From NCBI RefSeq assembly GCF_003443655.1, contig NZ_CP031941.1, forward strand, positions 5,965,001 through 6,029,000: DNA of 64,000 nucleotides, given 5' to 3'. Position numbers and translations under genes: made by a program. Source of the DNA: Nostoc sphaeroides (GTDB lineage Bacteria > Cyanobacteriota > Cyanobacteriia > Cyanobacteriales > Nostocaceae). Positions 19,598 through 59,229 of this stretch are shown here, piece by piece. The notes beneath the pieces were generated by a model, which ran no database searches, had not been told where the DNA came from, and worked only from the letters and a program-made list of their open reading frames with translations. Numbering within the stretch: position 1 is the first letter of the stretch; the number at the start of each line of letters is the position of its first letter.

Positions 19598-19701
19598 CTA
19601 TAGCACTTCTCGTTTACGTGAGGTACACTCGTAGGGGCACGGCACTGCCGTGCCCCTACACCCCGCTATATAATGTTGTACCGCATCTGAATGGGAACCG
19701 C
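19598..19701. mobile_element. Palindrome-centred miniature element, uninterrupted copy
   Basis: About 104 bp. The centre is the perfect 14-bp inverted pair gtaggggcacggca / tgccgtgcccctac (19631-19659) with a one-base axis. Outer arms (tatagcacttctcg on the left; gaatgggaaccgc on the right, which complements tatagcggttcccattc seen at 32459-32475) define the element. The same outer sequence, split at its central nine bases (19641-19649, ggcactgcc) by another element, occurs at 32.5 and 35.7 kb, so this is the empty-site version. Confidence 0.7.
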
Positions 19702-24194: not shown

Positions 24195-24290
24195 GAGCGC
24201 TGGAATTGTCCCTCCCATTTCTGGTGATACAAATACGCTAGCTTTTACGTTAGGTTGATACGTATGGGCATTGCGCCTTGCCCCTACGAG
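24195..24290. repeat. Relic junction: receiver-domain scrap plus right end of a 200-bp element
   Basis: On the minus strand 24195-24243 reads SPEMGGTIPALA, nearly the same as the SPEQGGTILAIA segment of the response-regulator domain encoded at about 25410-25445. It is joined to sequence (24241-24266) matching the right end of the 35.7-kb inserted element, then a degraded palindrome half (cccctac). A decayed hybrid-kinase fragment next to element debris is inferred. The rest of the gap to 24487 holds one more gcgtctcgtagagag repeat patch at 24349-24362. Confidence 0.45.
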
Positions 24291-32282: not shown

Positions 32283-32504
32283 AAATAAGGTAATTAATCA
32301 CAAATAACTCTACTAGAAATTTTATCAGCGGTGGTGTGACTATTTCAGCTTCTGAGTGCAGTCCTTTTCGCTTATGGCGGTTCTCACGGAATCCCACCCT
32401 AAGAGCAAGCGATGAGGGGGCTAAGAAAGATGTACTTTATGTGATTAGGAAAGCTATATATAGCGGTTCCCATTCAAATGAGGTACAAAATTATATCGCA
32501 AGGT

Positions 32505-32736
32505 GTAGGGGCACGGCACTGCCCATTGGTGTCAACTTAACGTAAAAACTAGTCTAGAAAAAGCTTTTAGGATTGCCTCGTTCCCAGCCTCCGGCTGGGA
32601 ATGCCATCTTAGAGGCTCGGCCTCTCTGATTTGCGGCAGAGCCGCTATGATGAGCATTTCCAGCCGGAGGCTGGAAACGAGATTTGAAATGAGTTTTACC
32701 TTAAGTTGACACCTATGGGCACTGCCATGCCCCTAC
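32505..32736. mobile_element. Palindromic element interrupted by a 194-bp inserted element
   Basis: The palindrome arms gtaggggcac (32505-32514) and atgcccctac (32727-32736) match the uninterrupted copy at 19631-19659. Between them ggcactgcc occurs twice (32515-32523 and 32718-32726), exactly the nine central bases of the empty copy, and brackets an inserted element at 32524-32717. The inserted element starts cattggtgtcaacttaac and ends with its complement (24-base arms, two mismatches); its core holds several hairpins such as cccagcctccggctggg. This is a textbook insertion with a 9-bp target duplication. Confidence 0.8.
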
Positions 32737-32771
32737 GAGTGTACGTCACGCTTGCCGGGAAACGCTATACA

Positions 32772-32917
32772 TAGGACTAGCCCTTTCAAGGTGGTGAGAT
32801 TTAGAACGAGAATTGGTTATTTCAACCTTCAAAAAGCCCAAAATCTGAGCGGAGGATTCAAGATGGTAGCACTGAAACAACGTATCTTCGTTGGCCACCT
32901 TGAAAGGGCTAGTCCTA
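32772..32917. mobile_element. Miniature inverted-repeat element, 146 bp
   Basis: Perfect 23-base terminal inverted repeats: the left arm starts taggactagccctttcaagg (32772-32794), the right arm is its complement (32895-32917). The termini are TA, so a TA target duplication is possible. The interior has no ORF that makes sense; the 82-codon ORF across it is built mostly from the repeat. Lies 36 bp right of the interrupted palindrome element. Confidence 0.68.
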
Positions 32918-35344: not shown

Positions 35345-36412
35345 AGAATCTAATCTCTACCTCCTTAATACTGTTCTGTGTTTTGTTGCAAAAATTTAGA
35401 CAGATGTAAAGTTTTAATTCCTGAATTTTTCTTTCAGTTTGAGAGGTTGTTTGAAAAGTGGTTAACTGCGATTTTAAGGACTTATTGATTACCTCTAGCC
35501 CCCCTTAAGAAGCAGGGCTGATTCATTCCCTAAATAGCTATAAAAATCAAGGGTTTTAGAACATTTGGCTACCGACAAGATCACTTTTAAAACATCCTCT
35601 GGCTGGTATTGTACGATGAAACCATGTACCGAAAAAATCAGTTAGAAAACTTTACATTATCCAGTTACAGCAGTTTTCATGTATTTGAACCACATCTGTC
35701 GTAGGGGCACAGCAATGCTCATTGGTGTCAACTTAAGCTAGAAATCGCTTGTTGACTTCCACGCCCGCCCAGAAATAAATTTCAGGGCTAATAGCCCAAG
35801 TCTACTCAAGTAGACTAAAGATTTTTCAGATTATTTAGTCATCTAAAGATGACTTAAGCTATTATTCTTGGAACTTCAGTTCCTTGCGGGACATGGCTTT
35901 TACGTTAAGTTGACACGTATGAGCAATGCTGTGCCCCTACCGCGTGGTCTATTTACCTGAAAATAGCTGTAAAACTCATAATCTTCGTGCGATAGAACTG
36001 CTATTATTCAGCCGTTGCATTAACAGTGATCGAATTCAACTCTACTAAAGTAAACTTTAGGTAAAACTTTGTTTATACCAGACTTTAAGTCGGAATAAAT
36101 CATGCATCAACTTAGTCTGATACTCTGCCGTTATTCGGCTGCATGAGTTGAGACACTTAAGTTTTACTCGAACATCTGACACCTGAGGGCGCTCACGCTT
36201 AACGATTCCCAAGTTTTACCTGGGAATGGTAAAATTATGGCTAATTATAATTTGTATTTACAAACACTTTGAATATTTGTGTTTGCATGGTCAAATAAGA
36301 ATGATTTAATATGATTTGTGCAAAAGTGGAAATCTGTATCATTTTTTTTGCAGATGATGAAAATTACTATTAGCTTTTGCAGAATATCTAATAACTACAT
36401 GATTATCTAACG
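35345..36412. other. Long spacer upstream of the ABC transporter, with an inserted element
   Basis: About 1070 bases. It contains the interrupted palindrome at 35701-35940 (listed separately), a short imperfect hairpin near 36208-36230 (cccaagttttacctggg) and AT-rich sequence before the transporter gene. No ORF with coding character. Promoters for the propeller gene (left) and transporter operon (right) are expected here. I saw no GTA-N8-TAC NtcA site in the last 170 bases. Confidence 0.55.
35701..35940. mobile_element. Second interrupted palindrome: 202-bp element with different core
   Basis: Arms gtaggggcac (35701-35710) and gtgcccctac (35931-35940) enclose agcaatgct twice (35711-35719 and 35922-35930), an exact 9-bp duplication at the same site as at 32.5 kb. 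The inserted element (35720-35921) begins cattggtgtcaacttaa and ends with the matching arm, but its core is unrelated to the 32.5-kb copy. The core instead resembles a separate dispersed repeat at 53165-53275 in reverse orientation (shared agtctact-agtagactaaag hairpin and gttgacttcc edge). Confidence 0.78.
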
Positions 36413-58393: not shown

Positions 58394-59229
58394 TTTTTTA
58401 TCTGGATTTTGCCTAAATAAAGGCGATTTTATTTTACATTACGTAGTCAATATCTTTGATTAACATTTGTTGCTTATTCTAATTAGGTCGGCATAAATAA
58501 TTATGGTTGGGATAAGGCAGGGGGTAGGGGGCAGTTCTGGGTGAGGGAAAAAGGGTTTAAGCCTTGTTTACTTTTCTTAACATAGGTTGCTTTTATTGTG
58601 CTGACTTACTTATAAATTTTACTTATAGCAGTTTTCGTTTGGATTCAAAACATGCTTTGGGCACAGCATTGCTCATAGGTGTAAACTTAACGTAAAAGCC
58701 AGCCTAGACAGAGCTTTAAAAGATTGCCTCGTCAAGAGTCTCCGACTGGGAATGCCCATCGTTGAGGCTCCGCCTCCCGAACTCGCGGCAGCAGCCCAAC
58801 GATCAGCATTTCCAGCCTCTGGCTGGAAACGAGATTTGAAAGGAGTTTGAGCTTAAGTTGACACCAATAAGCAAAACTTAACCCCTACGAGTGGTCTGTA
58901 TCCATACAATTGAGAACCGCTATATTGCAAAATCTCAACCATCGTCAGGAAGATTTATACAAATGTGGCAATCTATCTCAACAGCAGGTTTCTTTTTAGC
59001 TATTTTTGTATTGAAATTAATATTTAGGTAGCATATAGCGGTTATCGATTGGATGAGAACACCAAAATCCTTGCTGTCAAATCATTCCAGCATTTTTTTT
59101 GTATCTTACTGAACTGCACACCGCTATAATACAAATAATTATCTGACCAAAGTTAAAAAAGGATACAATCTCCATAAATAAATTTATGGAGATTGTTAAT
59201 TTTAAATTTTGAATTTGGAGCGAAGCGAC
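58394..59229. other. Spacer with a third inserted-element copy
   Basis: About 835 bases. It holds the interrupted palindrome remnant (58661-58887, listed separately), AT-rich sequence and, near 59172-59195, the hairpin atctccataaataaatttatggagat just upstream of the carotenoid-transfer gene. This hairpin could be a terminator or regulatory element; it lies about 35 bases before the gene start. Confidence 0.5.
58661..58887. mobile_element. Third, degraded interrupted palindrome with 196-bp element
   Basis: Left arm gcac then agcattgct (58665-58673); right copy agcaaaact (58870-58878) then acccctac. The inserted element (58674-58869) starts cataggtgtaaacttaac and its core is clearly homologous to the 32.5-kb copy (gattgcctcgt, gcggcag, ggctggaaacgagatttgaa shared in order). 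The target copies agree at six of nine positions, so this insertion is older or mutated. Confidence 0.6.

What the first reader, a model, noticed from the sequence alone, without database searches (positions are those of the whole stretch)
32505..32736. Element inserted into the exact centre of a palindrome, duplicating its nine central bases
The uninterrupted palindrome element at 19631-19659 reads gtaggggcac - ggcactgcc - gtgcccctac. At 32.5 kb the same arms enclose ggcactgcc twice, with a 194-bp element between, whose long terminal inverted repeats start cattggtgtcaacttaac. A 9-bp duplication of precisely the palindrome centre is seen directly. Repeated use of the same site (see 35.7 and 58.7 kb) implies a transposase that recognises the cruciform or palindrome, comparable in principle to insertion sequences known to target REP palindromes. 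I do not know this pair as a described system.
Basis: partly seen in the sequence, partly recalled or inferred. Interest (0 to 1): 0.72.

Follow-up and report, generated by a model that had tools for sequence, protein, structure and literature searches.

The report
Miniature transposon targeting centres of palindromes
A small jumping DNA element in a Nostoc cyanobacterium sits precisely in the middle of a repeated mirror-image DNA sequence, as do full-length relatives with a transposase gene in related species, while more distant cousins sit at ordinary sequences, so this group can show how jumping genes choose where to land.

Summary
At 32505-32736 a 194-bp non-coding element (32524-32717) splits the palindrome GTAGGGGCAC-GGCACTGCC-GTGCCCCTAC at its axis and duplicates the central nine bases. 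The palindrome is intact elsewhere: 72 near-exact copies in this genome, one in the same surrounding repeat (98% over 117 bp). The element is a MITE. Relatives with the same ends (1412-1458 bp) encode an IS4-family transposase; 14 of 15 sites with near-perfect duplications lie exactly on a palindrome axis. A sister lineage uses another palindrome, GTGGGGTGGGCATCTTGCCCGCC (9 of 13). More distant IS4 relatives show none (0 of 21). The lineages keep to their own palindromes in genomes holding both kinds, which favours sequence-specific reading of a symmetric target over reading of any hairpin; the numbers are small. The closest known case is ISRm22, an IS4-family element at the axis of Sinorhizobium REPs, so the principle is known; the cyanobacterial lineage, the MITEs and the split in palindrome choice are additions. 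Caveats: some copies spread as passengers of larger repeats; one arm variant was never found empty (15 of 15); no movement was observed.

The parts
19631..19659 (.). uninterrupted (empty) palindrome GTAGGGGCAC-GGCACTGCC-GTGCCCCTAC
   Evidence: folds as one stem, -17.4 kcal/mol
32505..32514 (+). left palindrome arm
32515..32523 (+). target duplication GGCACTGCC, copy 1
32524..32717 (.). 194-bp MITE with IS4-type ends (CATTGGTGTCAACTTAA / TTAAGTTGACACCTATG); near-perfect hairpin; no ORF of 90 aa or more overlaps it
32718..32726 (+). target duplication GGCACTGCC, copy 2
32727..32736 (+). right palindrome arm (ATGCCCCTAC, one change)
32458..32769 (.). outer repeat TATAGCGGTTCCCATTC...GGGAAACGCTATA, palindrome at its centre (edges read by eye, approximate)
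   Evidence: uninterrupted paralogue L014, 98% over 117 bp; the 540-bp intergenic stretch that holds it is absent in relative G128
35720..35921 (.). 202-bp MITE in a palindrome; duplication AGCAATGCT at 35711-35719 and 35922-35930; arms 35701-35710 and 35931-35940
   Evidence: axis offset 0, 14 of 14 arm pairs
35665..35972 (.). second kind of outer repeat TTACAGCAGTTTTCA...TGAAAATAGCTGTAA around the palindrome (edges read by eye, approximate)
   Evidence: absent at the orthologous place in three relatives, L288, L289, L290
58674..58869 (.). 196-bp MITE; decayed duplication AGCATTGCT (58665-58673) / AGCAAAACT (58870-58878)
24250..24287 (-). one-ended remnant: TIR 24250-24266 and arm variant 24267-24287 (read on the minus strand: GTAGGGGCAAGGCGCAATGCC)

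Best explanation
The 194-bp element is a non-autonomous derivative (MITE) of a cyanobacterial IS4-family insertion sequence. Shown: the transposase-bearing element (1412-1458 bp, 18-bp ends CATTGGTGTCAACTTAAG, one ORF with D-D-E and Y(2)R(3)E(6)K) and the MITEs share their ends, and both sit at the exact dyad axis of REP-like palindromes with a 9-bp duplication centred on the axis; empty palindromes exist. Inferred: the transposase works by cut and paste with staggered 9-bp joining and reads a long symmetric target (about 10 bp of arm on each side of RGCANTGCY) as duplex DNA, probably through a symmetric transposase dimer; the MITE was moved in trans by a transposase no longer found in this genome. 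A sister lineage follows the same axis rule with another palindrome sequence; a more distant lineage lacks the rule.
For: Anatomy. Empty sites: 72 in the genome; the alignment test gave paralogous uninterrupted matches for 10 of 23 intact insertions, 98% for the window's own (L014), but 5 of the 10 are only 71-76% identical and one of these is a non-palindromic site (3579037). Full-length IS with the same ends. Axis test, offset within 0.5 bp and at least 10 of 14 arm pairs: 18 of 23 MITEs, 12 of 15 class A, 1 of 4 class B, 1 of 13 class C (its palindrome is shorter), 0 of 21 class D, 7 of 5000 random places; offset exactly 0 with 9 or more pairs: 14 of 15 class A. Tree: a 100/100 branch parts A, B, C and L169 from the other class D rows; A is one clade at 98/99, C at 100/98. 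Palindrome choice: see rival 2. IS4 membership: NF033592 203.9 bits, cut-off 115; motifs; Tn5 transposase best fold match, E 5.8e-9.
Against: 32 of 55 own-genome pairs lack a perfect direct repeat, and at least three (845703, 1181093, 2534424) have inverted 9-bp flanks instead; recombination between copies is assumed, not shown. One arm variant was never empty. Insertions are not all independent: units spread inside outer repeats, and the four class A sites of G067 share one outer context with two different duplications. Some copies miss palindromes: class A L164/L184 (CCCTTAATT), MITEs 1405746, 3579037 and 4376682 (the last has class D-like ends), class B L221 and L222, class C L188, L189 and L231. 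No class A transposase in this genome at E <= 1e-60; no orthologous empty/filled pair of one and the same palindrome; no movement seen. Model confidence is moderate, pLDDT 71.
Confidence: 0.86

Rival explanations
1. The whole 230-bp unit (palindrome arms plus inner element) is one transposon with extended ends; no targeted insertion happened.
For: True in effect for the arm variant GTAGGGGCAAGGCGCAATGCC, joined to the TIR in 15 of 15 places and carried inside an outer repeat in most of the 17 listed cases; among the 23 perfect cases seven fall in two groups of units 71-92% alike including 70 bp of flank.
Against: 72 empty palindromes; direct rather than inverted central 9-mers in 23 of 55 pairs; different MITE families in one palindrome type; full-length IS in the same kind of site in other genomes.
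Confidence: 0.05
2. The transposase recognises any extruded cruciform or hairpin, not a sequence.
For: Exact axis in two different palindrome families; arms differ in sequence (CAC/GTG, TTT/AAA, CAA/TTG) while staying complementary; the palindrome folds well. L170, a 59%-identical relative left out of the counts, has one class C-like end but lies in a GTAGGGG palindrome.
Against: G085 holds 38 GTAG-type and 28 GTGGGG-type empty palindromes, yet 5 of 5 fetched near-full-length class C copies are flanked by the second type (four with perfect duplications, L187 without): 0.014 under free choice. G127 and G067 each hold both classes, each class in its own palindrome. In the own-genome sample 66 ends abut the main palindrome and 7 the GTGGGG type, with 29 and 18 empty copies there and 78 and 88 in the whole genome. 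Limits: ends and sites are not independent, the patterns differ in stringency, and the GTAG pattern cannot match the arm variant (right arm TTGCCCTCTAGA) that the G067 class A copies occupy, so the G067 values are not valid and are not used.
Confidence: 0.13
3. A protein or process at the palindrome (REP-bound factor, supercoiling, stalled fork) attracts a transposase with only a weak 9-bp preference like that of IS10.
For: The core RGCANTGCY is symmetric, as is the IS10 target (recalled). The three window sites lie between ORFs of 90 aa or more.
Against: Position is fixed to the base, and two related transposases choose different palindromes in one genome (G067, G127), which a shared host factor does not explain simply.
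Confidence: 0.1
4. Chance or assembly artefact.
For: None found.
Against: 3 of 20,000 random places against 104 of 162 ends; the junction pattern occurs in 46 of 53 genomes of the genus.
Confidence: 0.01

Closest known systems
ISRm22 of Sinorhizobium meliloti (IS4 family; PMC1525189, passages read)
   Same: IS4 family, 10/10 copies in REP palindromes, insertion at the palindromy axis, some copies with imperfect direct repeats laid to recombination
   Different: 6-bp direct repeats reported there against 9 here; another phylum and other palindromes; no MITEs or sister lineage with another palindrome in the passages read
IS1397, ISKpn1, ISPsy8 (IS3 family) and IS621, ISPpu9, ISPpu10 (IS110 family), as given in PMC1525189 (passages read)
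   Same: insert specifically into REP palindromes; ISPsy8 at the axis of a predicted hairpin
   Different: other transposase families; IS110 elements are guided by a bridge RNA (abstracts in the search listing)
IS4 family subgroups IS231, ISH8, IS4Sa (PMC2266710, passages read)
   Same: CA/CAT ends, YREK motif, about one helical turn of duplication; IS231 and ISRm22 (placed in IS4Sa) show target specificity
   Different: IS231 and ISH8 make 10-12 and 10 bp repeats; IS4Sa (8-10) fits, but subgroup phylogeny was not tested
GTAG-tagged REPs of cyanobacteria (GTAG-12, -15, -16; PMC3733652, passages read)
   Same: short palindromes with a GTAG tag in filamentous cyanobacteria; GTAG-15 dimers reported inside longer palindromes in A. 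variabilis
   Different: their consensus sequences are not in the text held, so identity with our palindrome is untested; no IS4 insertion in the passages read
Nezha MITE of cyanobacteria (named in PMC3733652; its own paper not read)
   Same: non-coding TIR element in cyanobacteria
   Different: sequence not available here; relation untested

Membership tests
IS4 family (class A element) | Y(2)R(3)E(6)K motif with DDE triad | tested here: met
   D161, D230, Y323, R326, E330, K337 invariant in 17 of 17 rows; spacing D(68)D(99)E against D(60-110)D(100-150)E in PMC2266710, the second one residue short of the stated range
IS4 family (class A element) | curated family model | tested here: met
   NF033592 203.9 bits, cut-off 115
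IS4 family (class A element) | single ORF, TIRs, duplication of about one helical turn | tested here: met
   439-445 aa in three copies, 16 of 16 matching end bases in class A rows, 9-bp repeats
IS4 subgroup IS231 | 10-12 bp direct repeats | tested here: not met
   9 bp, although the end consensus CAT-------AA--TAA fits
IS4 subgroup ISH8 | 10 bp direct repeats | tested here: not met
   9 bp
IS4 subgroup IS4Sa | ends CA------T, repeats 8-10 bp | tested here: met
   CATTGGTGT, 9 bp
IS4 subgroup IS4Sa | transposase clusters with IS4Sa | not testable with these tools
   ISfinder sequences not on hand
MITE | short, non-coding, ends of a known IS, target duplication | tested here: met
   pairs 107-472 bp apart, ends shared with class A IS, 23 perfect repeats of 55; no ORF of 90 aa or more in the window copies
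REP-targeting IS (type 1 of PMC1525189) | broken REP halves flank the copies | tested here: met
   class A 14 of 15, class C 9 of 13 among sites with near-perfect repeats; 104 of 162 own-genome ends
GTAG REP / REPIN | association with a RAYT (TnpA-REP) gene | not tested
   only the GTAG tag and palindromy were seen

The most novel reading that the evidence does not exclude
Within one IS4-family clade of cyanobacteria the transposase itself carries a palindrome-reading module: exact-axis targeting arose in the stem of, or within, the clade of classes A, B and C, is absent in the related class D, and switched from one REP family to another, so that REPs act as evolving landing pads. Because each landed element is itself a long hairpin, further elements nest in it and the stack spreads as a passenger of outer repeats.
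Probability: 0.3. Interest if true: 0.72.

Novelty: new variant of a known kind. Interest (0 to 1): 0.56.

Why it matters
REP targeting by IS elements has been described case by case. Here one clade offers a natural contrast: two lineages with the same axis rule but different palindromes (55-56% identical transposases), and a related lineage without it (37-40% identical). That makes the part of an IS4/Tn5-type transposase that chooses the target open to mapping by chimeras. It may also help explain how Nostoc genomes gather large numbers of MITEs: landing in palindromes between genes could do little harm, which was not tested.

Tried and rejected
Rejected: one-unit transposon for the main palindrome (empty sites); chance. 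The search for an autonomous element in this genome by TIR pairs and by PF01609 loci gave no class A element; a class D transposase with a related end (P0001) led to it in relatives. The 2.1-kb interval 369807-371915 proved to be two separate MITEs. Orthologous places in relatives showed the outer repeats missing rather than an intact palindrome, so no orthologous empty/filled pair was obtained. PDB sequence search found no relative (two weak coiled-coil hits). Structure prediction (pLDDT 71) matched Tn5; I did not analyse it for a target-reading part. Literature: ten searches listed no report of IS4 elements in cyanobacterial palindromes; three papers were read in passages only, most subscription papers are not held, and the papers on very small mobile repeats (Elhai) and on Nezha were not read.

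Dropped rows. Of 16 named loci, 10 gave element ends. One search kept rows with 15 or more of 16 matching end bases or a perfect duplication, and so left out L170 (ends 14 of 16, duplication 8 of 9, flanks GTAGGGGCAT and TTGCCCCTAC). Rows with under 8 of 9 matching duplicated bases were left out of the axis test: class A 8 of 23, B 1 of 5, C 5 of 18, D 9 of 30. Of the dropped class A rows, L145, L163, L194, L208, L212 and L213 still have a palindrome half on at least one side. Classes were named by end sequence, not by protein; some class A copies have broken or no open frames (L174, L180, L209 and others). L169, named D, falls in the A/B/C clade of the tree and has no palindrome. L226 gave no ends.

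The notebook's '16/16' for the never-empty arm is wrong: one search gives 15 of 16, 15 of 15.

Full report
The observation. The palindrome at 19631-19659 and the interrupted copy at 32505-32736 are as described. The inner element is 32524-32717 (194 bp), bounded on both sides by GGCACTGCC. Because the nonamer has an odd central base, a direct repeat (GGCACTGCC twice) can be told from an inverted one (GGCACTGCC/GGCAGTGCC); it is direct. The copy at 35.7 kb is equally clean (AGCAATGCT twice), the one at 58.7 kb is decayed. A fourth, one-ended remnant lies at 24250-24287.

Host. The window is C1:5965001-6029000 of a 6.68-Mb genome in 5 contigs. It belongs to the genus of G059, whose match coordinates on C7 coincide with those on a plasmid of Nostoc sp. 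UHCC 0926; so it is a Nostoc, by inference.

Within-genome census. The uninterrupted palindrome occurs 72 times with up to 2 mismatches. The 13-bp core of the end occurs 135 times without mismatch, of which the first 100 were listed. I took 65 stretches around the listed copies, which with the window give 1.31 Mb. There, 162 TIR-like ends (up to 3 mismatches in 17) form 55 pairs, 107 to 472 bp long, and 52 single ends; 23 of 55 pairs have a perfect 9-bp direct repeat. Of the 162 ends, 104 abut a half-site of one of five palindrome types, against 3 of 20,000 random places. In 18 of the 23 perfect cases the duplication centre lies within 0.5 bp of the axis of a palindrome with at least 10 of 14 arm pairs, against 7 of 5000 random places.

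Empty sites. The window insertion has an uninterrupted paralogue in the same outer repeat, L014 at C1:5701228, 98.3% over 117 bp. By that alignment test 10 of 23 intact insertions had such a match; five of the ten are only 71-76% identical, some with a different centre, and one of the five is the non-palindromic site 3579037. It is met for the variant arm GGGGCAAGGCGCAATGCC: 15 of 15 whole-genome places (up to 1 mismatch) run straight into a TIR, and 15 of 16 in the sample at up to 2 mismatches. Most of these lie inside a third outer repeat, TATACCAATTCAC...GTGAAATGGTAT, and are best read as passengers.

Independence. Units including 70 bp of flank fall in two groups (four and three members, 71-92% alike) among the 23 perfect cases; the other 16 are separate by that test. 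The 23 inner elements form six groups by sequence, with the same kind of ends. The counts above therefore overstate independent events.

The autonomous element. None was found in this genome (none at E <= 1e-60 except the class D gene). A class D transposase here (P0001) led to relatives: L145, L147 and L148 are 1412-1458 bp with perfect 18-bp ends CATTGGTGTCAACTTAAG and one ORF. The protein matches the IS4 model NF033592 at 203.9 bits against a cut-off of 115, carries D161, D230, E330 and the Y(2)R(3)E(6)K motif, and its model (mean pLDDT 71) has Tn5 transposase as best fold match.

Target sites of the full-length elements. Sites came from searches of 60 and 217 genomes of the family, 16 named loci and 60 further stretches. 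They were de-duplicated by flank, classed by end sequence, and tested for axis position if at least 8 of 9 duplicated bases agreed. Class A (the window's ends): 14 of 15 at offset 0 with 9 to 14 arm pairs, the arms differing in sequence, such as GTAGGGGTTT/AAACCCCTAC and GTAGGGACAC/GTGTCCCTAC; the exception is CCCTTAATT (L164/L184). Class B (four sites in one genome): 1 of 4 at offset 0 with full arms and 1 within 1 bp. Class C (ends GGTGTCAAGTTAAG): 9 of 13 at the axis of another repeat, GTGGGGTGGGCATCTTGCCCGCC or near it, and one more (L154) at the axis of a weaker palindrome. Class D (ends GGTGACAAG, GGTGAGAGG and others): 0 of 21 reach 10 arm pairs. In a tree of 26 transposases (midpoint root) a 100/100 branch parts A, B, C and L169 from the other class D rows; A (98/99) and C (100/98) are each one clade. 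L169 and three of four class B sites lack a palindrome exactly at the axis, so one origin of the axis rule for A and C is possible but not shown.

Sequence or shape. If any hairpin served, A and C should use both palindromes. G085 has 38 empty GTAG-type and 28 empty GTGGGG-type palindromes; its five fetched class C copies all have flanks of the second type, four of them with perfect duplications. Under free choice that has a chance of 0.014. In the own-genome sample 66 ends abut the main palindrome and 7 the GTGGGG type, with 29 and 18 empty copies in the same sample. I withdraw the G067 values: the pattern cannot match the arm variant TTGCCCTCTAGA that its class A copies occupy, and those four copies share one outer context. 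L170 (59% identical, one class C-like end, GTAGGGG palindrome) blurs the match between end type and palindrome. On balance this favours reading of a sequence with dyad symmetry over reading of a cruciform as such; hairpin recognition combined with sequence contacts is not excluded.

Spread. Interrupted half-sites occur in 46 of 53 genomes of the genus and empty palindromes in 46 of 53, not wholly the same ones: G129, G143 and G162 show interrupted but no empty copies at that stringency.

Nesting. At both clean window sites the palindrome is itself the centre of a larger repeat, and relatives lack that repeat at the orthologous place: one relative at 32.4-32.9 kb, three at 35.7 kb. The window unit 32505-32736 folds as a near-perfect hairpin (-80.3 kcal/mol, z -15.2), and some MITEs hold another TIR element inside them.

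What is known. PMC1525189 (passages read) reports ISRm22, an IS4-family element, in REPs in 10 of 10 cases at the palindromy axis, with imperfect repeats laid to recombination. That is the same principle, so this is not a new kind. PMC2266710 (passages read) supplies the IS4 criteria; PMC3733652 (passages read) describes GTAG REPs in cyanobacteria. None of the passages describes IS4 insertions into cyanobacterial palindromes.

Open points. Inverted flanks in some copies, the never-empty arm variant, the missing transposase in this genome, and the lack of any observed movement.

Noticed in passing
window 32772-32917: A separate ~146-bp inverted-repeat element (ggactagccctttcaaggtgg ... ccaccttgaaagggctagtcc) with 99% copies at C1:2843172 and C1:6522133 and copies in several relatives.
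   Followed up: no
L148 and L163, transposase residues about 369-384: Two class A transposases carry the same in-frame insertion of about 15 residues (FALAKPLAEKRVRST in L148), possibly a small dispersed repeat inserted in frame.
   Followed up: no
own genome C1:2109010 and C1:2851399: MITEs that carry another TIR element inside them (TAGGACTTACGCA...TGCGTAAGTCCTA; CAATACGGTTCAGTTAAG...CTTAACTGAACTGTATTG): hairpins nested in hairpins.
   Followed up: no
own genome C1:1301065-1301468 and C1:1405746-1405974: Tandem MITEs separated only by a 9-bp target-like nonamer, as if a second copy had landed in the first one's duplication.
   Followed up: partly
own genome C1:845703, 1181093, 2534424: MITEs whose outer 9-bp flanks are exact inverted rather than direct repeats; recombination or inversion between copies is a guess.
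   Followed up: partly
L118 (G000:C5) and C1:4376682: Class D relatives in this genome: an IS4 transposase gene with left end CATTGGTGACAAGTTAA and right end not found, and a 240-bp element with related ends and a non-palindromic 9-bp repeat GTCATTAGT.
   Followed up: partly
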